Shown here: in pieces, positions 12,898 through 38,600 of the stretch
How positions within the stretch are numbered: the stretch's first letter is position 1
Layout: each line of letters opens with the position of its first letter
Notes under the pieces: model-generated
The model's database searches: none
What the model was told of the DNA's origin: nothing
Seen by the model: only the letters and a program-made list of their open reading frames with translations
Origin: Owenia fusiformis
Taxonomy: Eukaryota > Annelida > Polychaeta > Sabellida > Oweniidae
Direction of reading: 5' to 3'
NCBI GenBank assembly: GCA_903813345.2
Contig: CAIIXF020000005.1
Span: 28,833,375 to 28,897,374, forward strand
Length of the DNA: 64,000 nucleotides
Program-made: the position numbers and the translations under genes

Positions 12898-15146
12898 ATG
12901 TCTCACCAAGGAGCAGCTTTACAGGGATACAATAACGAATTAGTGAAATGTATGCTTTGTTTATTTTCTGTATGAGAATCAATCAAAATGTGTTTTTAGA
13001 AAAAATTTATTTTATTTTTTGGTGTTCAATTTTGATTTTGAAATATTTACTTATTTATCAAAGAAATGTATACAAAACATGCAACATGTCACAATCTAAG
13101 ACACCACAATGGCATATAAAAGAAGTATCATATGTTAGGGAAAAAATGTTTGTTTGTTTATATCCAATATTTGTGGTGCTTTAATGCCACCTTATATAGT
13201 CTCTGGTGCTGGTTTTCACTTTGTAGTCTCACTGATGTGGTTTACACTGTTGTTTTGTAAGAGTTTATTTTTATTTTGGTTTTGCTTAAAAGTCCTTATC
13301 TACTTATAACTAATGTTTTATTTACACTTAAAATCTTTTGCTTTTTATGATGTAGGTGCGTAATACATCATATAGCTTTTTATTCATGTCCTTGTTTAGT
13401 GTTTGATTTTCACCAGCAAGGGTTTTCAGATCCACTGCACATGTATTTCCACTCTCTAGAAGTATACAGTCTGCATCATATAGCATTTTATCCCTTAGAT
13501 CCTGGAGTTTGTCGCATTTAAATAAGTAATGGTCAACTGTCTCTGGTTGGTTGCAGTTTAAACAGAGGTTAGTACTATGTATAGGGTTTATTTTCTTCAG
13601 ATGGCTGTTAAGTCTGGTGTGACCACTAAGGAGTTGGTTTGTAATGCAGAAGGTTCTTCTGTCAGATTCACCTAGCAAAGGTCTCTTTCCTACCGACTCA
13701 ATAGAGCATTGGATATACCCCAATGTTCAATCTTCTATTTATTGTAGTGGAAACAAAACAAACAAAACATCAACCTTCTAAAAATTTAATGACTTACTTT
13801 CCTTATCTCAAAGCTTTTCAGTGGCTAGATTGATCTCGATTATCTTGATTTACAACCCTTTCACCTTTTCACACAGTTTCAGCTTCTCCGACGTTCGCGG
13901 TTCTAAACTCAGTCAAACTAAGCATTTTTGAAGAATTTGCAGTCTGTTTAGATTTGATTTGTAATTATTGCCCCATATCTAATTCCAGTAATAAATATGA
14001 GAATAGATAATATTTCAGTTAAAATTCTTGAAGAAAATTGTAACTTGGCCTAGTTGAAGAAAAGTTAGAGTGTTCATTGGCTTGTTCATAGGTTGGGTAA
14101 TGTCAACGGAAGCATGTGAATGGAATGGACTAGTTGTAAATCATGTCATATAAATATCGATTTAATACAAAGCCTATATCAATGACTACTATGATCAAAA
14201 GTGTGGGATAATCGAAATTTGTTTTTTCCTCTTATTGATCCTTTCAAACAACTTTATTCATTCAAGCAAATGTCCAATCAGATTGTCATTGTCCAATAAA
14301 CCTGAGACCTCTTAGTTGTTGGTTTTATGCTCTATCCTCAAGGTGTAAAATCCTAGGCTGGAATAATCACACTGCAAAATGCACTGGTATGGGTATTTTT
14401 GTTTTATATAACAAATATAATATTTTCAGGTATAGAAGACTTATGTACAAAGCGTGATGATTTGCAAAAACAAATACATGAAGAAGAGGAAGAAAAACGA
14501 AAAGTTCAGAATGACATTAGGATTCTAACTGAAAGACTAGCAAAAATTAATGAAAGCCTAAGTAAAAAGATGGCTACACGACAAGAGTTTGACAAAACCA
14601 TAGCAGAAACAGAGTCGGCATATATGAAGGTATGCATTTCAAATTAATAACCTTGTCAAATAACAGAACACTTGAATTTGATATTTTGTTTCGGCAGAAA
14701 TTCTACACCATAAATCTTGTCATGATGGATGGAGTTTCAAATACAACTCCTAACATTTAAAATATAAAATATTGTAATTTACTTAAGATTTTACCTCACC
14801 GATTGGTTAAGGTTATCGATCAATTAGAATGCAATGAACTAAATGATAAACCTAAATATTTTGTTTTGGCAGAAATTCTACACAATTAATCTTGTCATAA
14901 TGAGGGAATTTTCAAATACAGGTGACTCAATTGGATAAGGTTTAATACTTAATACTATTCTGATTAATTAGAATGCATGATTTCAATGAAATACATTATA
15001 ATCCTAAATATTTTGTTACCCTTCAGATTCTTGAGAGTTCGCAGACTTTACTAAATGTGTTGAAAAGAGAATCTCAGAATATAAGCAACAAAGCACCAGC
15101 AGGATCCATCATCAGCCAATCCAGGATTAATACTGCAGCTCCATGA
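12898..15146 (+). CDS. SSNA1: SSNA1 (Sjogren syndrome nuclear autoantigen 1 / NA14), complete
   Basis: Small coiled-coil protein of centrosomes, basal bodies and axon branch points; in other animals it forms fibrils that bind microtubules. Exons: 12898-12949, 14430-14629, 15027-15146 (TGA), 123 residues, against 119 in human. The start is MSHQGAALQGYNNELVK, almost identical to the human N-terminus. Exon 2 is one long coiled coil with the family signatures CTKRDDLQKQI, LTERLAKINESL and FDKTIAETESAY. Exon 3 begins ILESSQTLLNVLKRE and ends in a short unconserved Ser/Asn-rich tail. All splice sites are GT-AG. Intron 1 holds a LINE remnant; intron 2 holds a short diverged internal duplication. An AATAAA at 15571 is a candidate polyadenylation signal. 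The start codon is 678 bp from the nearest DMRT-like exon on the other strand. Identification is secure. Confidence 0.95.
13328..13723 (-). pseudogene. LINE ORF2 C-terminal remnant (RNase H end and zinc knuckle)
   Basis: 131-codon open frame in SSNA1 intron 1. It shows LLSGHTRLNSHLKKI and the motif CLNCNQPETVDHYLFKCDKL, the CxxC...HxxxxC zinc-binding end common to non-LTR retrotransposon polyproteins. RT and the catalytic RNase H core are gone. A 5'-truncated remnant that by chance keeps an open frame. Confidence 0.75.
13808..13912. repeat. Direct repeat A, right copy
   Basis: Partner of 12474-12575; contains TCAAAGCTTTTCAGTGGCTA and the same TTCGCGGTTCTAAACTCAG end, plus a small internal insertion (CCTTTTCACC). 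Confidence 0.8.
14678..14925 (+). repeat. Diverged internal duplication in SSNA1 intron 2
   Basis: CGGCAGAAATTCTACACCAT followed by AAATCTTGTCATGATG at about 14694 recurs as TGGCAGAAATTCTACACAAT, TAATCTTGTCATAATG at about 14870, roughly 180 bp apart. No coding content. Confidence 0.7.
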
Positions 15147-17600: not shown

Positions 17601-20600
17601 CTAGTACGATTTGTACTTTTCCAATTTTTCAATGAAATTACAAAGAGTCTGTTGGTTTTTATATGCATCACTGAGTCCAATCATTCGCAGATTGCCGGCA
17701 TAGTAAATAATTGTCACTTTCATTGTTTCAAAGGCCTTCATTGCATTCTTCAAGGAATCCATAGAAACGCTCTCACCTGCAAACATAACCAAAATAGATT
17801 TAAAAAAGAATTGATTTATGTGGTGCCTGCCCGCGGCCACACATGCACCCATCAGTCCAAGATAATGACAATAGCACTTTTTAAAGTGTGATAAAAATTT
17901 ACTTAAGTTCACATAAAAAGTAAATCTCTACACGCTGACACAAAAATCAAGCAAGTTATGGGTTGCATCTTGCGTTTTATGTTTCAATGTTTATTTGGAC
18001 AAATTAATATGAAAATCTGCCATCTGATATCTGGTGTTCATTCTGAAGATACATTTCCTGACCTATTTCATGTTTCAATTTATCAACGTTATTGTACTTA
18101 ACACATCTTACAATAATCAGTGAGCCCCTGATTCACTCTACTTCTTGTGTGCTTCTGAAGGTTTAACAGGAAATCCTCCTCTGAAAAAACAATTTTTTGT
18201 AATTACCATCTGCAAAAACATTTATCTCCTATATTATTTTCTCTTTTTCATTTGAATACAGTGTCCAATTGTCACACATTTCTTTAGAATTCAAACTTGA
18301 AATAACAAAAGCATTTACTTTATTCATTGCTTATTTCACATTTCATTTCTTTTTCAAAAGAATAATGGAGATTAATTTGTAATTTAATATTGCCATATTG
18401 CAGATATTTAAAACTAGAAATCACAAATTACAATCTTTTTCTAATGAGCTCTATGTACCTGGCTGATCTTCCTGTAGCTTGGCAAGTTGGCACCCAGCAA
18501 TCCAGTATGATTCCACAATAGGGGCAAGATATGACTTGAGGAAATGTAGCATAGCTTTGTGTTCAAGCACTTCTAAGTTCACCTAAAATATATACATTTG
18601 TAAATATGAAGTCAGGGATAGTATAATTATGAGATTTATCATAGGGACATATATGATATCTCCATTATGATTTTACAATAGGAACAAGATATAACTTATG
18701 GAAGTTTAACACAGCATTAACACTACCCAACAATATACACATGTGATACAATGTCAGGGAGAGAATATGATTTGATACCCCTGAAAGGGATAAAGGCACA
18801 TGCATACATCCATGTACACATATTTAACTAAAGTGCTACAATGCTACATTACAGTCAACAAAAAATGATAAATTAGGAGGTTTGTAGAATGAACTAATAC
18901 ATATATCTAAAGTATTTTACCTTCAAATATCTATCAGGTATGGGCAAATCATCGCCATCAGAGTCACTACTGTTGTCAAAGTCCACAGACTTAGCAAGTC
19001 TTTGTGCCCATTCCTTGTCTTTGGTAGAGTAACCCGTATCATCCTACAACATTTCACAGGAAATTAGAAATTGAGTGGTTTATTCTGGGGGAAATTGAGT
19101 GGTTTATTCTGGGGGAAATTGAGTGGTTTATTCTGGGGGAAATTGAGTGGTTTATTCTGGGGGAAATTGAGTGGTTTATTCTCAATGAGGATTATTTGCA
19201 TATAGGTATCAACACAGAAACTAATTTATGATTTTTTGGGATTACATGCTCTTTGTTCTTGTGAGATAATGGTTTGCTACTTCATCAGTATCTGATGGTT
19301 ACATCTCTAATCTCTGGCCAGGTTTATTTTAATAGGGCACACTTTTACAATTTTATCCAAAATAGCTGGCCCAATAGCGTTCAATATTGATAAATAGCAG
19401 CCTTGTCTCAGTAAAGTATGGTGACATAAATTTTTTCGAATAAATGAACCATAAAATAAATATTACGTTTGTCACAAATTATTGCTGGTAGATCTGTAAA
19501 TAATTTCTCATTAAATGTTGACTAACCTCATCTACATAAAATATTTCTTTCACAATAAACTGCTCCAAGGCATCAGAGAGGGCATTGTCCAGACTGCTAC
19601 AAGGCTACAAGATCATAAAAAGCTGTTAACATCTGCATTACTAATATAAGTAAATCCCTATATCAGGGTAAAGTGTTACAAAGGCATAATAATTATTATT
19701 ATTATTATTTATTTATTCAGTAAGCTAAGTTTTGAAATACATACAATGAGCGGGTGACACAAATTGTGTATATTCCCGACAGGGTGGTAAGTTGCCTACA
19801 TAGAAACAGAGGGGGATCTGTTTGTGTGCAAATGCTTGTAATGGATGGTAAATGAATTGTGTGTCATAAAGCCCAAAATATAAAGTATACGAATGATAAT
19901 CAATTATTGACAAAGTACTTTTTCAGTTCTCTTTTCATGATGTGAACACTTCGAGAAGATTTAATCTTGTTTGGTAATTGATTCCAAATTGTTGGTGCCG
20001 TGAAAGTTAACATTGAAATGCCATAGTTCGTCCTTACTTTAGGTTTATCATAAGAATCCTTGTTTCTGGTATTGTGATCATGTCTCGCCTGGACCATTTT
20101 GAAAAAGTTAGGAAAAATGTTCTGGTAGTTATCAAGCTTATTTATCCATTTATACATGAATAAATATTTCTGTTGTTTGTGTATGTCAAAAATATTCAAA
20201 AGGTTTAACTGTTTGAATAATGGTAGGGAATGAGCCCTATAATCGCTGTTTGTTGCAATGCGGGTGAATTTCTTTTGCACAAGATATAGGGAATTTAATG
20301 AACTACATGTTTCACCCCAAATAACATTGCCATATATAAGATGGGAATATATAAGTGAATAATAGATACTCATAAAACCGCTGATATTCAACAGTTGTTT
20401 AACTCTATATAAAATACCAATTGTCCTAGAAATTTTTGCATTAACAGAAGCAATATGCCGTTTCCAGTTCAAATGGTTATCTATTGTTATTCCAAGAAAG
20501 TTAATATGATCAACTTGTTCAAGTTGTTTGTCATTTAGATAGATTTTTATATTATTTGCATTAAATCTTTTTTGTCTTGAGGAAAAAATGATATATTTTG

Positions 20601-23600
20601 TTTTATTAGCATTGAGTGATAATTTGTTTGTGACCAGCCATTCCTCAATATGTTTGAGTTCAGTGTTTAAAGTTTCTGTCAGGTCATGTAGATTTTTGCC
20701 TTTGATCAATAAATTAGTATCATCTGCAAATAAGACGAAAAATAGTGTCGGAGAAGAAAGATAAATATCATTAATATATAATATAAAAAACAGGGGTCCC
20801 AAAATTGAGCCTTGAGGAATACCGCAAGTGATCAACTCACGATTAGAGATTGTTTCCTTATATAAAGTTTGCTGAAATCTATTTTTAAAATAACTTTTTA
20901 TCCAGTCAAGAGCAACACCACGTATACCATAATATTGAAGTTTGTCAAATAGTATGTTATGATCTATTGTATCGAAAGCTTTGGAAAAGTCAATGAATAA
21001 TCCTATTGTAAATTCACCATCATCGATAGATTTTCTGATCTTTTCAATAAATGTTAACACACCCATGAAAGTTGATCTCTTTTCCCTAAATCCAAATTGA
21101 TTAGTATACAAAATGTCAATGATATCTATAAACTTTGTTATTCTTTTATGCATTATTTTTTCCAAAATTTTTGAAAAAACAGGTAATACAGATATTGGCC
21201 GATAATTGGTGAAAAAATGTTTGTCATCTTTTTTATAAATCGGTATAACTTTAGCAATTTTAAGTTGGTCCGGAAAAACTCCGTTTGAAATGGATAAATT
21301 AAAAATATGCATTAGAGGCTGATATAGAACAAAACCGCATTCTTTCATAATAAAAGGTTTAAAATCATCATGACCTGCAGCAGAAGGTTTTAAATTAGAA
21401 ATTATTTTTTGTAGTTCGTTAACATCAACTGGGTCTAAAGAAATTGAAGAAGCCTGTTGACCTAATGTTTGCATAAAATCTAAAGGTTTTTTATCTGACT
21501 TTGGAATTTTGGCAGCTAATTTTTCTCCAACTTTTACAAAGAAATTATTAAACTGATTAGCTATATCCTGTTTGTTGGTTATTTTCACATTATTTTGAAT
21601 GAAGAAGTCTGGAATGTTATTATTTTTATTCTTTTTTTGAAGTATCTCATTAATTATTTGCCAATTTGCCTTTATGTTGCCTTGATTCAGTTTAAATTTG
21701 TTATTATAATATTGCTTTTCAGATAATTTAATTGTACTTTTTAGTTGATTTGCATAAGTTTTATATTGTTTTTTATTTTGATCTGTGGGATTTCGAAGAT
21801 ATTTCTTGTATAGTTTGCTTTTATATCTAATTGACTTAAGTATGGCTGACGTAATCCATGGCTTTTGATTATTATTGTATAGTTATAATAATTTTCAAGA
21901 GAAAAAGTTATGACTTATTTCGCTATAATTTATTTTCCATGTACAATGTATTATATCATATATGAAGTAGACCCTGCTGAAGTTTAAGCAAGTTGTTCAC
22001 ATACATAGGTGTTACTGTTTTTGCCCACAATGTACATACTGTATAATGCGAGACATTGATGTTTTAGTACTCACTGGATTAAATGTGTATTCAAACTGCA
22101 ATATCTCACATAATTGTGTTGCACACTCCATGAGTCTCTGCTTGGAGATTGTGAGATTATTTCCCAACATTGACGCCTCCTCCCAGTTGCATATTGCATA
22201 ACAAGCAGTAGCTGCAAAGAAAACAACAGACATTAAATACTTTGAGGGTCATTATACCTTATATTGAAAGACACCCCCATGGGATGTTCTAAGATTTAAA
22301 GGTCTCCCTTCATAAAGAGATACTAATATATTAAAAGAAAAACATATATTCTAAAAATAATGAACTGTAGTGCAAAACTGGGTAGATCCTGTATCAATTT
22401 AATCTAAAATGATCTTGCTCTTACCAATGACACTGTCCAATACAAAAGCAGTACCAGCAACATTGCCATAGTAGACTAGTTCAAATACATGGGGGAGTTG
22501 GATTGTTGGCTTTAACCGAATACAGCCTGGATTGCAACTTGCCCTAAATAAATAAATAAAAAACACATTGAAATGCCATTTTATCATAGACAATCTTCTA
22601 GGATTTTAGAAAGATTTTAAACTTAATAGAATAGCCAGGATATTTTAGACAGAAATATCCAATGAATAAAAAATAACAATACGACAAAACAAAGACAGCT
22701 GTCATTTATATAAAATTCTGTTGTCTTCAGACCGTTGAACTATTACCTTGCTTTAGCAATCTCAACTTCCCTATATTATATTTTGATGCTAAGCTAGAAA
22801 ACTCCACGGAGTACCAAATCCCAACAAACACTATATAAATCATGAATCTGTACAGTCACAATGTAATATTTACCTTCTACTCTTCCCTTCAATAAATATT
22901 TGAGATCATTGTAGTGTCATGTTACCATGATATATGAAGAAAATCTGTCGGCGAGTATTCAAGTGATCTTCCAGACAGATGGTTGAACTGACTGACTGAT
23001 GAACTGACGGACAGACGGACTGACGGACAGAGGGTTTCACTATATCCCTACTGAACTTCGTTCATTGGAATAATTAAGACTGTGATTACTAAAGCATACA
23101 ACTACTTGTACATATTTACCCTTCTGAATCATTATCAGGTATTGACTGCTGAACAAGATGGGAGCCAAGTACAATGCAGGCATAGAGCACAATGTCAACC
23201 GGTTCACCTGAGAAGCCCACATCTCTACCTTTCAGCATTAGCTCTTCCCTAAGCCACATAACACTACTTGCTAGCTCATCCACAGTGCAGCCCTGTATGG
23301 GACAAGAGGTCACTTTAAATATGAATATCATTGAATGTCCTATGTCACCCATGGTAAGATTGACAAATATTATGAATTATTGTATCACTGTCAATTTGAC
23401 ACTCTCTGATTGGTACATGTGCTACATATCTAGTAATAATGGACATTCTTTTTAGGTGAATAATTATACTGATAAATAAATAAAGCCGGAAAAATTAGCT
23501 TGAAGGATATGATTGGGACCACCTGATATCAAATTTGTATATTGAATTCTGGCAAAGCATTTCCATGAGATACCATGAAAAGATCCAAAAGTCAAAGTTT

Positions 23601-26600: not shown

Positions 26601-29600
26601 TTCAGAAATAAAAATTATATTTGAATCAAACTGAAATAATTAATTATTACATAACAATGAGACAAATAGCAACCGTTACTATAGAAAACTTCATTGATGT
26701 TACAATTAAACAATTATTGACAAAAATAGCAACCGTTACCATAAAAAGCTTCAATGATGTAATATACAATTAAAAATGTTACTAAGGTATTACACAACAT
26801 ACCACCTAGAAACGACACTAAGACATTATGAATATGAATATATAAACTATAACATCTTAAAATAGACGGGATCCAGTGTGTAACCCTGATCCCTGTTTAA
26901 TTCTGGACTTTTAAGTTTAATATGGATTGCTTCTTTGATTTTTCTTTTTAACCAGTGTTTTTCATTATCAACTAGATGATGGCAACTCCACGGAGTAGCA
27001 AATCCCAACGAACAAAATATCAATTACCAAATTCCAATCAATTATACTCATTACTTTGGTTAAAATTGAAAAATTTAGATTTTAGAATTGCGAATTCCTG
27101 CAAAGCAGCCATTTTGAATTTTCTGAGGTACAAATCTGAAAAATAATACCATAATTGTGATCTACTCCAAAATTCCTTCAATTTGAGTATTTTTTAGCCA
27201 TACGTTGAAGGGATCGAAAAATTATTGCGAAATCGTACATTAGACCCCCATACACGGCCCCTGGGGGTCAGGATGAAAAACACTGAATATATGTGGAATA
27301 AATAGATGTTGCGAATATACTACCAAAATTTCAAACAATAATATTAATTACTTTGGTTTAGAATGAAAAATTTATGATTTTTGCGAAAAAGTCCCGCCAT
27401 TTTTAAAGCGGCGGCCATCTTGAAAAAATCCATTTTGAATTTTCTGAGGTACAAATCTGAAAAATATTACCATAATTGTGATCTACTCCAAAATTCCTTC
27501 AATTTGAGTACTATATAGCCATACTTTGAAGGGATCGAAAAATTATTGCGAAATCGTACATTAGACGGCCATTTTGAATTTTACGAGGCTCGAATCAGAA
27601 AAAAGATACAATATTTGCAATCTACTCTTAATTGCCTTTCATTTGAGTATAATAAAGCTATACTTCAGAAAGATCTAAAAATTAGCGAAAATTTCTGTTT
27701 TCCTGACCCCCCATACACGGCCCCTGGGGGTCAGGATGAAAAACACGGAATATATGTGAAATAGATAGATGTTGCGAATATACTACCAAAATTTCAAACA
27801 ATAATATTAAATACTTTGGTTTATAATGAAAAATTTATGATTTTTGAGAAAAAGTCCCGTCATTTTTAAAGCGGCGGCCATCTTGGAAAAAATTTTTTGC
27901 CTAAAACTATTCATCAATATACATCTTTCAACCAAATATGAAGAAAATCCTTCAACTAATATTTGAGTTATCTTCCGGACGGACAGACGGACGGACGGAC
28001 GGACGGACGGACGGACGGACGGACGTCTTGTAATATATAGATACACTGTCCCACATGTTTTGTTAAAGAGCAACTGAAGCATACAATCTTTCCACAAAGA
28101 TAAATTCAGACCAACATTTGGATATCTACATCATATAGGTAGATTATAATTGATTTTATTTACTTGTCATATCCAGTATTTTATACATTATAGGTTTAAA
28201 CCCATATTAATATTGAAGTCATATTTGGTAAGTTAAAATCCAGTATATATTAATTATAGGAAATACCCATATTAATATTGAAGTCATGATTGGTAAGATA
28301 AAAATCCACATTAGATATAAAAGCAGGTTCCTCAGGCTTGTGACTGGGCATAGGTGGGTTTAACGTTTTAGTCCATGGAAACACTCCCCTTCCCTGCATG
28401 GATTCAATAAATAAGACATAACTGGGTCCCTGGACTATATTAACAAGTCCATGAACGCTTCAGTGTACGGTGTATTTTTATAGTTAACATTTTTAATTTG
28501 TTTTCCATTTTTATAGTTAACATTTTTCATTTGTTTTCCATTTTTATAGTTAACATTTTTATTTATTTCATTTTTTATTTTTCTATTCATATATCTATAC
28601 CATTTACTCAGTATTTTAAACTATTTAAAAAAATCATATGTATATTCATTTTATTTAAAAAAATTTACGGACGGACGGACGGACCGACGGACGGACGGAA
28701 GGACGGAGGGCTTCACTATATCCCTACCGAACTTCGTTCGTTGGGATAATAACCGATACACCTGTCCAATTTATTTCATGTTCTTTATTGATAGAGTGTT
28801 CCATAATGGCTGAAGCTATCTGTCCATTGGAAGATAAGGTGACCCTCTTGTGCTCCTTTACTCTACATTCCAAATCCCGCCCTGTCTCACCAATGTAACA
28901 CTGACTACAATCTCCACATTCAACTTTATATATCACACCTGCCTTTTTCTCATCTTCAACCTTGTCTTTCAAATGGACCAATTTATTCCTTAAAGTCATT
29001 GTAGATGAAAAGCATACTCTAATATTGTGTTTACTTAATATCCTTCGTAACCATTTTGAGAGGCCTTTAACGTATGGTAACACAACCGTGCAAACTGGCT
29101 CTGGTAAATTATCTCTATTTCTTCTATTACGGCTCCTAACATCACATTGTTTAATGAACCACTCTGGTTACCCACATTCTTTTAATGCCTTCACGATCTG
29201 TTCTTTTTCTTTCAACAAATCTTCAGATCAAGTACTAACCAAACTGGCCCTCTTGAACAGCGTATTCACTATACCTGCCTTTGTAGCCAACGTGTGATTA
29301 GAATTATAATTTAAGTACTGATTAGTATGCGTTTTCTTTTTGTATACTGTCAAAGACACTGATCCATCCATCTCACATTTGACTAATGTATCTAAAAACG
29401 GCAGATTATTGTCAACACTTTCCTCAAATGTAAATTCTATCTTAGGATTTTGTGAATTCAAATGTGTAGTAAAATCACGAACATATGTTTGTGTTTTTAC
29501 TGTGAAGGTATCGTCCACATATCTGTACCAACATTTAGGGGGTTCGTTCGCAGAAAACAGAGCTCTTTGCTCTAAGTCCTCCATGAATAAATTTGCTACT

Positions 29601-32600
29601 ACTGGCGATAATGGTGATCCCATCGCTGCTCCATCCTTCTGTACATAATAACTACCATCAAATTGAAAATATGTAGTTGTCAAGCAAAACCGCAATAACA
29701 TCAAGATGTCATCAATATCCATTTTTGTCCTACCCTTAAGACTGTCATCTTGCTCTAATTTATGTATAGTATAGTATAGTATAGTATAGTATAGTATAGT
29801 ATAGTATAGTATAGTATAGTATAGTATAGTATAGTATAGTATAGTATAGTTTTTATCAATTTTTTCTCAGTTTTTATTTTTTCTTGAATTTTGATGACAA
29901 GATTTGTTAACAAGGCATTAACGTGCAAAATGTCACCACCTGGCATTTGAATGCCAAGCAACACAATCCATAAAAGTCGAAGACTATATAGCAATATGTC
30001 ACCACTTACGATGGTGACATAAAAAGGCTATGGACATAGAACTGAAGCTTACCTAAAGAAAGGTATAAGGAGGTTGTCTCCAGCTGCTACATGAGGGGCC
30101 TGTATATCATAGTTGAACAGTATAAATGTAAGTAGGATGTAGTCAAGGTGACTTCTGTGTATTGGTAAATAGATCATTGGTACCCCATCCTGCAAAAATA
30201 CAACACATTTTGGAGTTAAATACAATCAGTATTTGTTAAACTTTCAGCCAATGATTGAGTATTTACTTCAAAATTACTCTTTGTTCATCTAGACAATATT
30301 TTATGCTATTTTTTATTTGTTTATTTAGTTTACCAAAGTTTAAGCAACATTCTTTATGCTACTGTTGAAACATTATTTGGTGCCAGACAGCCAGTACACT
30401 TGAACTCTTGTGAATTACTCAATTGACTGAAATACTCATTGATGGATTGCCTCAAATAATTGTATTATACAAAGATGATATTGAGTCATTAATGGTTAAT
30501 AATGAATATTGAGTTTTACAATTAATGTATGTTGATGTTCCTCAAAATGTATCTCTAATGAAAAGAATTAGCCTTGCTTCAGACCCTGGACCCCCTTATC
30601 TACTACAGTTGTTGCTAAGGGGGAGGGGGTCCAGGGTCTTGAAGCAAGGCTAGAAAAGAATGATGAGCTGACTTACCTCGGAGGCTTTAGAGATTATATC
30701 CATCTGTCCTTTATGTACCTGTAATGTGGATAATAGATGTCCCAGCAGTTTCTGTAGGAACCACCCTGTGAACCTACAACAGTGAAATATCACGGTGGTG
30801 AATTATAAATATTTTTATTCTGGGAAGGATTAAATTTTACAAGCAGCTTTTATTATGTAAACTCTTACACTTACCGTAATATGCTACTAATTGCCTTAAT
30901 CCTACCATATAGCCTTTCTATGGTGAAACTTATACATGTATGTATTTCGTGACAACCCTGTCTCCGTCACGAGTCTATGACCTCAATTTTATCCACCATT
31001 TTTTCTATGTGAAAACAAATCGTTTAATTTAGCTTTAGTATAGTGAATTGAGTAACTTTGATAGTGCGTTGTTGTGCAAAAATGTCGGATAGTTCTAAAA
31101 ACGAACGTAAATCTGATAGAGAAGACACAGATAAAGAACATTTGAGCAGTGAAAATCGGAACGTCGATAAAAATGTTCAGAGTCAAGATACGGCGAAAAA
31201 ACACAGAACTGTATCCTTTGACAAGAAAAGAAGTAATACTAGCTCAGGTAGTAGTACTTCTAGTTCACCCAGACCTAAGTTTCAGAAATCTAAGAGATCT
31301 CGTCGGGACTCTAGTTCTGAACATAGCAGAGATCGACGACGTCCACCTGATTTGAACAAGAATAGACCACGTCGTGCTGGTCATTCTTCTTGTGAGAAAT
31401 CCCGTCGGGATTCAAGTCAGGAAGATAGACGTGAACAACGTCATCGTTCACGTGTATCAAAGAAGAGTAAGAAGAGATCACGTCGTGCTGATACTTCTTC
31501 TTCAGATAGCTCAGTGTACAGCCAGTACAGTGAGTCTAGTCCTAACTACAGGAGACATGGCCAACATCGTCGGTCATATTCACCTCATAAGGGTTATAAG
31601 AAGTCACATCGTGCTGACAGATATCACAGGGAACATAAAAGGCGTTTTCGATCACCTTCATCTTCCCCTGAAAATAGATCTAGATATGATAAATTCAAAT
31701 CTCGAAGAATAGATAATCATAGTTCTAATGATACGTCAACTCATATGCCCCAGGTTCAAAAAAGGGCATACTTTGATTATCAACAGCGTGAGGATTTCAC
31801 ACGTTCAGTCCCATCGTGCGGACTTCCTTATCAAAAGTTTGACAATGCTGGTGAATCAGCTTTTTCAGTCGGAAACAACACTTTTTCGCAAGAATCGCGT
31901 AAATTTCCTATGCGTTTTCTACAATCTCTTCCTACTATGAGGCAATCGGACATTCCTCATGGAGGCCATTCTTTTGAAGAACGTGGTACTGATTTTTTTC
32001 CTGGTATGTCTAGACAGGAGAGACAACTGAACAGAGATCACATGTATTCATATCCTCCTGTTGTACCACGTACTACTTCACTAGAAGAAACTTTTTCTTT
32101 AAATGAAGACATTGAAGAAGAACAGCCAGCAGTGGAAGTGTCCATTTCAGATGAAATGACACAGGCAGTAAGTATGGTAAGAGACTGCTTCCCAGATCTT
32201 ATAGGTGAGTTGTCTACACCAAAATCGGCATATAAATCCAAATCTTTAGTCAGGGATAAAACACCCATTGTGCCAAAATCACTTGAATTGCCACTTTGTC
32301 CGGGTGTTAAACACAATCTGGCTGAAGGTGTTCATCTTTTCAAGGATTATCCTCCAAATGCGTTCTTGAAGGATTTTCCTAGCTTTGACAGCAAACGGTT
32401 TAAACTTAATAAGAAATTATATCAAGTTGTACCTTCAGAAGCTGGAGTTAAACCCTGTGAATTAGATGTTGACTTTCCTACGATAGTCTCATCTAAATTC
32501 AAGAATCAAAAACAGGGTAACACAGGTCAAACAACCAAGTCCGAGTTAAACCCTCGACCTTTTCTGGCCATCAAGACAATGGCAGATTGGGAGGGAGTTG

Positions 32601-35600
32601 TAAGAGAGCAATTGCTAACAACATCCCATACGGAGTGGTTCATAGGCACAGTGAAACCTCTTTTTGAAGAGTTACTTGCACAAGGTAACACTTCAGAGGA
32701 AGATGTCTGGAAAGAGAAGCTTGAAAAAGCGCTCACACTTGTTAAAGTAGCAGGCAGGTGTATTGAAGATAATAATCGCCTGACTACATACCTCCTGAAT
32801 CAAATAGTAGCTTGTAGGAGGCACTCATACATTGGGATGAGAGCAGACAGGGACATCCCCTTCAGTATTACTAAGGAATTGATGTCTTTAGATAGCAGTT
32901 CTGGAAAATTATTCCAGAACAAATTGCCAGATGTCAAAGATAGCCTCAGAACTGCTAAAGCTGACTTAGCTCAGACTCGCATTTTGGACTATACAGCTCC
33001 AAAGAAGAGTCAATCTGACAAACCTGGTTTTTCAGATAATAAAGACTCAGGTCAATCTTCCTTTCGAGGTAGAGGAAGAGGAAGTAACAGAGGCTATAAC
33101 AGGGGAAATAGAGGCCGAGGTAGTTCAAGAGGAGTTGCCAAGTCCTCTAAAGGCCGGGGTCGTGGTACCCCTAAGTGACTCTCCCCACGTCGGAAAATTG
33201 CCACAGTTCCCAATAAGATGTTCAGGGGAACCAGTAGGAGCAAGGTTGCAGAAATATTGGCAAAATTGGGAATTAATAGGAGCTCACAGAATGATTTGCA
33301 ACATTCTGAAGGAAGGTTATTTTCTTCCTTTTCGGGAGTTCCCAGTTCTAACACAAATTCCAATTTGGTCAACATTTCCAAACCCTGTAAAGAAAGAAGC
33401 AATTTCCGACATAATAAATTTGCTCCTGCAAAAACAAGCAATAGAGAGAGTTTGGAACATAAACTCTGTAGGCTTTTACAGTCGAGTATTCTTAGTGCCC
33501 AAGAAAAATGCAAATTGGAGGCCAATAACCGATTTGTCAATATTGAACACATTTCTGGAGGTGCCACATTTCAAAATGGACACACCAGAGATAGTGAAAA
33601 GGCATCTAAGAAAAGGAATGTGGTTTGCATCCCTGGATTTAGTGGATGCGTACTTGCACCTACCAATTGCAGCCCCTCATCGAAAGTATCTGAGGTTTGC
33701 AATTCAAGATCTAGGAGTTTTCCAATGGAAGACTCTACCATTTGGGGTGGCAATCGCACCTCTATTATTCACACAAGTGATGGCTCAGATAAAACAATAT
33801 CTTCACACGAAGCACAATGTGAAGATTTTTCAGTACATCGACGATTGGCTCGTAGTAGCAGACACAAAAGAATTGTGTCAAAGCCATATTCAACTGGTGA
33901 TAGATCTAATAAGAAAGTTAGGTCTATTGATCAACGTAGAAAAGTCAGAGTTAGAACCAACTCAGACTTTAGTGTTTTTGGGGTCAAAGTTCGACCTAAC
34001 AAAAGGTGTGATCAAACCTACAAGAGAGCGAATAAGCTTGTTGATAAAAGAAATTCAATTATTCCTCTCAAAACCAGCACAAACTGCTCATTTGTGGCAA
34101 AGAGTGCTAGGACTCTTGGCCGCAGCAGAGAAATGTGTTCCCTTGGGCCGTTTGAACATGAGAGAAACTCAGTTCGATTTGCAGACAAAATGGTCTCAAA
34201 AGACAGGAAATCAAGAGGACCAAGTAAAATGGTCTCACAAAACTCAGACAGAGCTCATGTGGTGGGTAACCACATTGGAGCTACAGGAAGGGGTACCTTT
34301 GGAGACCAAAGTACCCCAAATCAGTCTTTTTACAGACAGCTCCCAAACTTCATGGGGAGCACACATGAACGGGATAGAACGTTCAGGCGTGTGGACACGT
34401 CAGGAACAAACTCTTCACATAAATGTGAAGGAATTGATGGCAATAGAGAAAGCTCTTTATGCTTTCAAAACGGATCTTGTGAATCAGACAGTCATGATTG
34501 CATCAGACAATGTGACAGCGATTTCATACATAAGAAATCAAGGGGGTACCCACTCGTACGTGCTTTACCAGATAACAAAGAGATTGTTGAACTGGGCAAA
34601 ACTTCACAATGTGAAGATTCAGGTAAGACATATCGCAGGCCGACTGAATGTGTTAGCAGACGCCCTGTCGAGAAAGAACCAAATCATTCAAACAGAGTGG
34701 TCTCTATCACATCAGGTTTTCAAAACCATATGCAAGATATGGGGTCAACCTCATGTAGATCTCTTTGCCACAAGACACAATGCAAAAATCGATCTATTTG
34801 TGTCACCAGTACCCGATCCACTAGCTTGGAAAGTGGATGCCTTGAGCATAGAGTGGAAGAACCTCTGGATTTACGCATTTCCTCCAACTCCTATATTGAC
34901 AAAGGTTTTGGAGAGACTGAAAATGCAGGAGAATGTGGAAATGATTCTGATTGCTCCTTGGTGGCCAAAACAGCCATGGTTCACAAGTCTTCTGGAGACA
35001 TCAGTAGATGTACCCAGGCTCCTGCCATTGATTCCATCTCTGCTGAAACAACCACATATGATGGTGTTTCACAACAATGTATCAATGTTGAATCTTCACG
35101 CGTGGAGATTATCCACAAGCAGCTCAAAGCAAAGGGCTTTTCTGAAAAAGTTGCCCAACGCATGGCTAGACCACAAAGAATCTCCTCATCAAGAGTGTAT
35201 GATTCAAGATGGAATATTTGGTCTAAGTGGTGTAGTGAAAGACAAAAAGATAGTCTCAATGCCCCTGTAGAACAGGTGGCAGAATTCTTCAATTGGCTAT
35301 TTGAAGAAAAGGGCCTCCAGCCTAGCACTTTTGCAGGCTATAGAACAGCCATCAGTAATACAATCAAAGATGCTTCTGGTGTAGATATAGGCTTCCATCC
35401 TTTGTTGGGAAATCTACTGAAAAATTTCAAACAAGACAGGCCTAGATGTTTAGAACTTGTGCCAAATTGGGATTTGAATCTAGTTTTGCTAGGTTTAATG
35501 AGACCCCCTTTTGAGCCTATAGAATTGATAGACTTAAAATTCTTAACTTGGAAAACTGTGTTCCTAGTTTCACTTGCGTCTGCTGCAAGAAGAAGTGAAA

Positions 35601-38600
35601 TTCATGCTTTAGCTATAGATAAAGTTTCACATAACTTGAGCAAAGCTATTTATTATCTAGGATATAGAGCTGACTTTGTTCCCAAGACTTTTCTCAAGAC
35701 TGGGAATGCAAATCTGTTGTCAGATATCGAGATAAAAGCTCTTGAAAATCCTGATGATCCTGATGAACGTCTCTTGTGTCCAGTCAGGAGTTTGAAAGTC
35801 TACTTAAGAAGATCTAAGGATTTAAGATCAGACCAGAAGAACCTATTCTTGTCTTATAAGAAAGGTTACAATAAAGACATTCACAAATACACTGTATCAT
35901 CATGGATCAAGCAGTGTGTAGTACGAGCATTACAGGCAGTACCAGAATCTTCAGCGGTAAAGTTTAGAGTACATGCTCACCAACTGAGAGCATTAGCAAC
36001 GTCACTAGCTTTCTCAAAGAAAACTAGTTCTGTGGACATTTTGAAGGCTGGAAGATGGTCTAATCTTACTACTTTCATCAAGTTTTATTTGAAAGACATT
36101 ACAGTAAAGGACTCTTCCAGTGACTTACACTTTATTGCGGGTAATACTGAAATTTAATGTCTTGTGATATAAATTATATCCACCATAGAAAGGCTGTAGT
36201 GTAAATAAATTAGAGTTGGAACACAAAGTGTGCATTTGTTTTTTATGCTTTACACTTTCCCTGTAACTTCTAAATTTGTTTAGATTAAAGGCGATTTGTC
36301 AGCCATTGGTTGAGAACCATAATTTTACATGTTTGTCTATGAAGTTAATCTATGAGGCCCACCACCAAGTATGGTGTATTCAGCAATTAGTAGCATATTA
36401 CGGTAAGTGTAAGAGTTTACATAATAAAATCCCAAAATTTCAGTACCCATCCACCCCGCCTATTACATAGATGGGTTTTGTAAGTAATTAGGATGGACAA
36501 AATTGAGGTCATAGACTCGTGACGGAGACAGGGTTGTCACGAAATACATACATGTATAAGTTTCACCATAGAAAGGCTATATGGTAGGATTAAGGCAATT
36601 AGTAGCATATTAGGTAAGTATAGTTTTCTTATAAAAACCAAAATTACTGAAATTTTGGGAATTGTTTTTGTTGAACCAAATATATAAAAACAAAATTACA
36701 CATACAGGTATATTTTAAATTTTTGAGGGTATCAAGATAACTTTATTATACTGTATAAATGGATCAACTGAAACTTTCATCCTCTAGCCACAGTTTAGTT
36801 AGTGTAGTTCTGTAACACCCTGGTCTATTTGCCAGAAAATTTATCTAAATTACATAAGGAAATGTGTGCAAACCTGATTAGTCTATTTGATATTGTGGCT
36901 TTCATTCTATGTATTATTTTCCTGACTTTTTTACGTTGTTCCTCGAGAAGTTTTGTACTTTCTTTCTCGTCTTCAGTTCCAGTCTCTATGACGACTCTTC
37001 GTATTGCTTCCACAACACTGTGTAAACAAGTGTAACACAATTGAATACAAGTGTACCAAAATATACACAGTAATTCGAAATTTTAAAACAAGACTTTTAT
37101 TTCAGTACTGGTATATAGTATGTAAATACTGAGCTCTCATTTCCTTTCTTTGGAAAGTGAAACCTAACAAGTCAATATGATACATCAATGTACCATAAAG
37201 ATGCATACCTTGGGGATGTTGCAGTTGCTATAGATACATCTGGATATTTATGGCTGACATCTCGTCTCATAACTTGGACAATATGACAGGTCCACTGTAC
37301 AATAAGGGGATTGTTTCTTCCCTCCTCATCTACCCGTAAGATATCTTTCAAACCACTCGTTGGCATGGAATCTTCATAAAACCTGTCCTGGAAATATAGA
37401 TGAGATTTGTGTCAGTTTAAAATATTTTTTGTTGCACAGGCCTGTAGCCAGGGGTGGGGGTGTTCAAAAACCATCCTGGCCCAAAATTCTTCAAAATCAT
37501 TCACTTTTCACCATTCTGAGCACTTTTCAAATGATTTTGGCCCCCTGGAATTTTTCAAAAAATGAGCCCCCTTGGCAAATCCTGCCTACTGGCCTGTTAT
37601 GTATAATTTTAATAATACATGTACACATATTGATGTGATCCTAATAAGATGAGAAAGAATAGGAAATAGACACATGTTTTGAGGAAACTGGCTGAAATAC
37701 TTATTGAAAATTCAAAATGAAAAACCTAACATGATGGGTATAAATTGTTCCTTCACCCCTCCTTTCACAGACATGCCAAAGCTTAAACATGTTGTCTTCA
37801 CTTCGTGTTTTTGCCTTTAGAAATTTTCTGAAATACAGCTATAGTCAATCTAGAAAGCTTTTATTCAATATTTCAATTAATCACAGATTTTAGCATCAAT
37901 AGAAATGTCATCAATAGAAATGTCATGTTTTCTGCACAATACTTTAGAAAAGCCATACTATTTCATTGTAGAAATACCATAAACAAATCACACATAAATT
38001 AATAATGAACTAGGCATTAACATGACAGAATTTTACAGTGTGTATGTGGTTCCAAAAGTTTTACAAACTGTGACGGATCCAACCATCGATGCCGAGCTCT
38101 GAATGCATGAAATGAAAATTATGAAGGCTATCAGAATATATCACCAATGATGACACTAACACATTAAGGAACAAGACGCACAGTGATAAATATCGAACTT
38201 TGAAGAGCAAAATGACCACTGTGTAATTTACCCATCATGCCCTAAACCCAATCAGATCTAGACACTGGCCTGCTCTTGCATCTAACAGATGTAAAATTTC
38301 AAGTTTAACAGATAAGTAGTTACGTGGTGCTTGGCCGCGCACCCATCCATATAGATTGGCACACACTCATCAGCATAAGATGTGACAGAACAGTACTTTT
38401 CTAAAATGTGATAAAAAAGTTCACTTACTCTACTATTTGGCATACATTGGCAACACCTCCCCATATTTGGTCGCAGATTGGCATTGTCAGCTGATACTGA
38501 AGGCATTGTCTTGTAATGGTCATAAACAAACTTCTGAAATAAATATAACACTTTAACTGGAATATTAAGAAACAACATAGAATATTAGGGAGGGGGTATT

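What the first reader, a model, noticed from the sequence alone, without database searches (positions are those of the whole stretch)
30849..36630. Apparently intact DIRS retrotransposon in a GPAT intron
All parts needed for mobility are visible: Gag-like ORF, RT with YIDD, complete RNase H acidic residues, methylase-like region, tyrosine recombinase with R...HxxR...W...Y, near-identical 118-bp ITRs and an internal complementary region. Intact DIRS copies are rare in draft genomes.
Basis: partly seen in the sequence, partly recalled or inferred. Interest (0 to 1): 0.7.

Follow-up and report, generated by a model that had tools for sequence, protein, structure and literature searches.

The report
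Young DIRS retrotransposon with damaged circle template
This is a recent insertion of a known kind of jumping gene (a DIRS1-like retrotransposon) inside an intron of a fat-synthesis gene; its genes are all readable, but an internal template thought to be needed for it to jump is mostly deleted, and its relatives in the same genome suggest how two of its proteins are made as one chain.

Summary
The window holds a DIRS1-like retrotransposon with exact ends 30848-36660, antisense in a GPAT intron.

It was wrong that every mobility part is intact. Five sibling copies carry an internal complementary region (ICR) whose right half matches the right end, exactly over 63 nt in three of them. Here a 58-nt deletion leaves 16 nt. 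In the accepted model this is the template for the right end, so I predict this copy cannot regenerate its own ends, though it could supply proteins in trans. It is the only one of the six copies with all frames open. Copies differ by 0.5-1.7%; this one has 12 private substitutions in 5.8 kb. Intact DIRS are not rare here: the genome has over 100 related recombinase matches, and at least one other family has a copy with open frames and full ITR and ICR.

Side finding: in eight families the recombinase frame stays open through all of Pol (0 stops; 19-39 expected from synonymous shuffles). It joins Gag in frame, either across one UGA-C (6 of 6 families) or with no stop (2 families). This suggests a Gag-recombinase fusion made by leaky termination.

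The parts
30848..36660 (+). whole DIRS1-like element (the 3-bp junction triplet TTT is its first three bases; the right-hand counterpart in the flank is 36661-36663, ATT)
   Evidence: exact ends from flank divergence in up to six copies
30848..30876 (+). left terminus, divergent ITR part
   Evidence: partial match to the right terminus
30877..30995 (+). left ITR, conserved part (118 of 119 match the right ITR)
31082..33178 (+). ORF1, Gag-like, 698 aa, SR-rich N-terminus and RG-rich C-terminus, ends in UGA (33176-33178) followed by C
   Evidence: C-terminal half similar in other families
32970..35270 (+). ORF2, Pol (RT, RNase H, methylase-like), +1 frame relative to Gag, no early ATG; 209-nt overlap with Gag
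   Evidence: RVT_1 8.2e-26 at aa 176-340, RNase_H 0.023 at 451-566, Dam 0.015 at 574-678
33834..33845 (+). RT catalytic YIDD
33179..36157 (+). YR frame, open for 992 codons from the codon after the Gag UGA, same frame as Gag
35075..36157 (+). tyrosine recombinase domain (R at 35591, HxxR at 35978-35989, W at 36056, Y at 36086)
36383..36429 (+). left ICR, exact reverse complement of 30848-30894 (47 nt)
36430..36445 (+). right ICR remnant, 16 nt complementary to the right end; a 58-nt deletion follows (siblings C3, C9 and C11 keep 63 nt exact)
36494..36612 (+). right ITR, conserved part
36613..36660 (+). right terminus: divergent ITR and right extension
36874..37017 (-). GPAT exon upstream of the insertion
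   Evidence: spliced translation reads through
30677..30773 (-). GPAT exon downstream of the insertion
30053..30189 (-). next GPAT exon (HRSHLD acyltransferase motif)

Best explanation
The feature is one of six copies of a recently active, low-copy DIRS1-like retrotransposon family. It inserted antisense into a roughly 287-bp GPAT intron by tyrosine-recombinase integration of a circular cDNA at a T-rich triplet, without target duplication. After insertion it accumulated 12 private substitutions and private deletions, one of which removed 58 nt covering most of the right ICR. Shown: open frames, exact ends, the ICR deletion and the sibling copies. Inferred: this copy can still make Gag, Pol and recombinase, but its RNA cannot template the missing right terminus, so it is defective in cis for making its own circle. 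Inferred from eight families, with less confidence (about 0.45): the recombinase is made as a Gag-YR chain by passing the Gag UGA-C stop, and Pol by a +1 shift out of Gag.
For: Ends and flanks; ORFs and domains; ICR of 16 nt here against 63 nt exact in three siblings; siblings broken by frameshifts, deletions or inserts; divergence and private substitutions; GPAT splice join reads in frame. Published model: the transcript lacks end sequences and the ICR templates them (PMC5633606; PMC3266345). The right end here is complete, so the ICR was probably whole when this copy was made, and the deletion came later.
Against: No RNA, reads or individuals were available, so transcription, fixation and the reality of the 58-nt deletion in DNA are untested. 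Sixteen nt of right ICR might suffice. Pfam scores for YR (0.073) and the methylase (0.015) are below curated cut-offs, and both structure models were too poor to use.
Confidence: 0.8

Rival explanations
1. The copy is fully mobile as it stands; the missing 58 nt of right ICR are dispensable.
For: All frames open; left ICR, both termini and the 16 nt next to the circular junction are intact.
Against: All five siblings keep the full right ICR (C8 and C2 with mismatches), no sibling shares the deletion, and other families keep about 64-68 nt. Annotated DIRS1-like elements list right ICRs of 36-89 nt in the rows read (PMC3266345 Table 3).
Confidence: 0.1
2. The ICR deletion is an assembly or polishing error at a hairpin-forming repeat, and the real copy is intact.
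For: The ICR and right end are complementary, and such repeats are error-prone; no reads were available.
Against: Five siblings with the same complementarity were assembled without the deletion, and this copy has two further private deletions.
Confidence: 0.1
3. The YR frame is reached by its own start (internal initiation, termination-reinitiation or splicing), not by passing the Gag UGA.
For: No measured readthrough; no stimulatory RNA fold downstream; YR-frame amino acids in the overlap are no better conserved than those of the third frame.
Against: The frame is open right back to the Gag stop in six families, no early ATG is evident in some of them (for example L055), and two families have no stop at all between Gag and YR.
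Confidence: 0.4

Closest known systems
DIRS1-like superfamily (DIRS-1 of Dictyostelium; metazoan families in PMC3266345)
   Same: ITRs, two-part ICR, Gag plus RT-RH-MT plus YR, long Pol/YR overlap, terminal TTT, no target duplication
   Different: this copy lacks 58 nt at the right ICR; Gag and YR lie in the same frame across one UGA-C, which I did not find described in the papers searched
Xenopus DIRS-like families (PMC9210276)
   Same: about 120-bp ITRs, TTT termini, three ORFs, ICR
   Different: no sequence comparison was possible with the tools at hand
Ngaro and PAT elements
   Same: tyrosine recombinase retrotransposons
   Different: they have split direct repeats; this element has inverted repeats and an ICR

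Membership tests
DIRS1-like retrotransposon | inverted terminal repeats | tested here: met
   119 nt, 1 mismatch
DIRS1-like retrotransposon | left ICR complementary to the left end | tested here: met
   47 nt exact
DIRS1-like retrotransposon | right ICR complementary to the right end and extension | tested here: inconclusive
   met by the family (63 nt exact in three siblings) but truncated to 16 nt in this copy
DIRS1-like retrotransposon | RT and RNase H in one ORF | tested here: met
   RVT_1 8.2e-26; Ty3 and retroviral RT hits in PDB; RNase H acidic residues conserved
DIRS1-like retrotransposon | methyltransferase domain after RNase H | tested here: inconclusive
   Dam E 0.015, below cut-off; structure model unusable
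DIRS1-like retrotransposon | tyrosine recombinase instead of integrase | tested here: met
   R, HxxR, W and Y invariant in three families; profile finds Cre chains first, E about 0.04, weak
DIRS1-like retrotransposon | no target-site duplication, triplet at the junction | tested here: met
   element starts TTT; right flanks of six copies begin ATT, GCT, TTT, TTT, TTT, TTC; no duplication seen
DIRS1-like retrotransposon | RT phylogeny within DIRS1-like | not testable with these tools
   no eukaryotic reference sequences held
Ngaro or PAT | split direct repeats | tested here: not met
   no long direct repeat pair found; ITR and ICR instead

The most novel reading that the evidence does not exclude
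In this animal's DIRS elements one weak stop, UGA-C, at the end of Gag acts as a switch: most ribosomes stop (Gag), some read through in frame and cross the whole Pol region to make Gag-recombinase, and others shift +1 to make Gag-Pol. The 640-730-codon overlap is kept free of stops only as a passage to the recombinase. Two families have lost the stop and encode Gag-recombinase as one frame.
Probability: 0.45. Interest if true: 0.6.

Novelty: new member of a known kind. Interest (0 to 1): 0.35.

Why it matters
The six copies give a clean natural contrast. One copy has every frame open but lacks most of its right ICR, while siblings keep the ICR but have broken frames, so the proposed role of the ICR in DIRS replication can be looked at in natural copies. 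The frame analysis across eight families gives a simple testable account of how DIRS recombinase is expressed; the papers I could search describe the ORF overlap but do not explain it.

Tried and rejected
ITR identity as a clock: rejected, because the single mismatch is shared by siblings. Extra amino-acid conservation of the YR frame in the overlap: the first test gave z up to 5.3, but the third frame scores as high, so it reflects shared codons and I dropped it. A stimulatory RNA structure after the UGA: no signal in six families. AlphaFold of YR and the methylase region: pLDDT 39 and 33, so no fold search. IMG/VR scan for independent DIRS: no relatives.

Full report
What is there. The element runs from 30848 to 36660. 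These ends are exact: siblings elsewhere in the 498-Mb assembly share sequence up to these bases and differ beyond them, at the left end in the four copies examined and at the right end in all six. Three frames are open: Gag-like 31082-33178, Pol 32970-35270 and YR to 36157. Pol matches RVT_1 at 8.2e-26, with weak RNase H and Dam-type methylase matches in the expected order. RT, RNase H and recombinase catalytic residues are conserved among the families aligned here. A profile of the recombinase finds Cre chains first, at a marginal E of 0.04, aligning two separate colinear segments.

Terminal repeats. The conserved ITR parts are 30877-30995 and 36494-36612, with one mismatch in 119 nt. Siblings carry the same mismatch, so it was inherited and does not date the insertion. 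The left ICR is an exact 47-nt complement of the left end. The right ICR is complementary to the right end over only 16 nt here, but over 63 nt exactly in the copies on C3, C9 and C11; C2 and C8 also keep the segment, with mismatches. This copy lacks 58 nt there. It also lacks 21 nt just inside the left ITR and 9 in-frame nt in Gag relative to siblings.

What that means. In the published model the DIRS transcript lacks end sequences, and the ICR is the template from which they are restored before circularisation (PMC5633606; PMC3266345). The rows of Table 3 of PMC3266345 that I read give right ICRs of 36-89 nt. The right end of this copy is complete, so its parent had a full ICR and the deletion most likely came at or after insertion. 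I infer that this copy can supply proteins but not its own end template. This is inference; nothing here measures mobility.

Family and age. Six copies lie on six chromosomes and differ by 0.48-1.74%. Private substitutions: 62 (C2), 33 (C8), 24 (C11), 14 (C3), 12 (window), 7 over a shorter length (C9). The siblings are broken by small frameshifts, internal deletions or insertions. The window copy is the only one with all three frames open. One 86% fragment was also seen. So the family was active recently and is small. The genome has many other DIRS families: 120 recombinase matches were listed, many with about 1000-codon open frames. Locus L053, from a family of about 16 copies, has all frames open and complete ITRs and ICRs.

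Host context. Exons of a GPAT gene on the minus strand flank the insertion. Joining exons 37017-36874, 30773-30677 and 30189-30053 gives an uninterrupted GPAT reading frame. The intron is 6100 bp, of which the element is 5813, so the original intron was about 287 bp. The element is antisense to the gene. The assembly resembles that of Owenia fusiformis in size and number of large scaffolds (505.8 Mb and 12 in PMC9977687), but identity was not tested.

How the recombinase is made. Gag and YR are in the same frame, separated by one UGA followed by C. From the next codon the YR frame runs 992 codons without a stop, crossing almost all of Pol. When Pol codons were shuffled among synonymous positions, that frame had a mean of 32-33 stops in this element, 19-39 across eight families, and never fewer than 9 in any shuffle; the observed number is 0 in all eight. 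The third frame has 74-82 stops in the three families where it was counted, so this is not general avoidance. In six families the stop is always UGA-C; in two families (L072, L073) there is no stop and Gag-YR is one frame. UGA-C is a weak terminator that raises both readthrough and +1 shifting in reporter tests (PMC9841425), and Pol lies in the +1 frame. Two controls limit the claim. The overlap's YR-frame residues are not conserved beyond what the third frame shows. And UGA-C implies Asp in Pol, so conservation in Pol could also keep it. The families share ancestry, so six of six is not six independent observations. Long Pol/YR overlap is already known (PMC3266345, PMC6681497); I found no account of the in-frame single UGA in the papers searched, but the original DIRS reviews were not readable here.

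Verdict. A new, young member of a known superfamily, with one largely deleted cis-element. It is ordinary as an element. The expression pattern across families is the part worth following.

Noticed in passing
window 33176-33178; L053 4373-4375; L055 3673-3675; L069-L073: Gag and YR frames are joined by a single UGA-C or by no stop in eight DIRS families; the YR frame has zero stops across Pol.
   Followed up: partly
window 28724-29866, minus: Penelope-like element fragments (RT with YVDD and a GIY-YIG-like ORF) next to a TATAC simple repeat, in a GPAT intron.
   Followed up: no
window 19900-21882, minus: Long open ORF of a non-LTR retrotransposon RT (RVT_1 9e-35), 660 codons.
   Followed up: no
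G000:C9:6561855-6564632 (L022): An internally deleted copy of the family: left end joined to the RNase H region, 3.1 kb missing, with full termini and ICR; possibly a non-autonomous derivative.
   Followed up: partly
window 13328-13726, minus: Small ORF with a zinc-binding domain found in reverse transcriptases (zf-RVT 7e-4).
   Followed up: no
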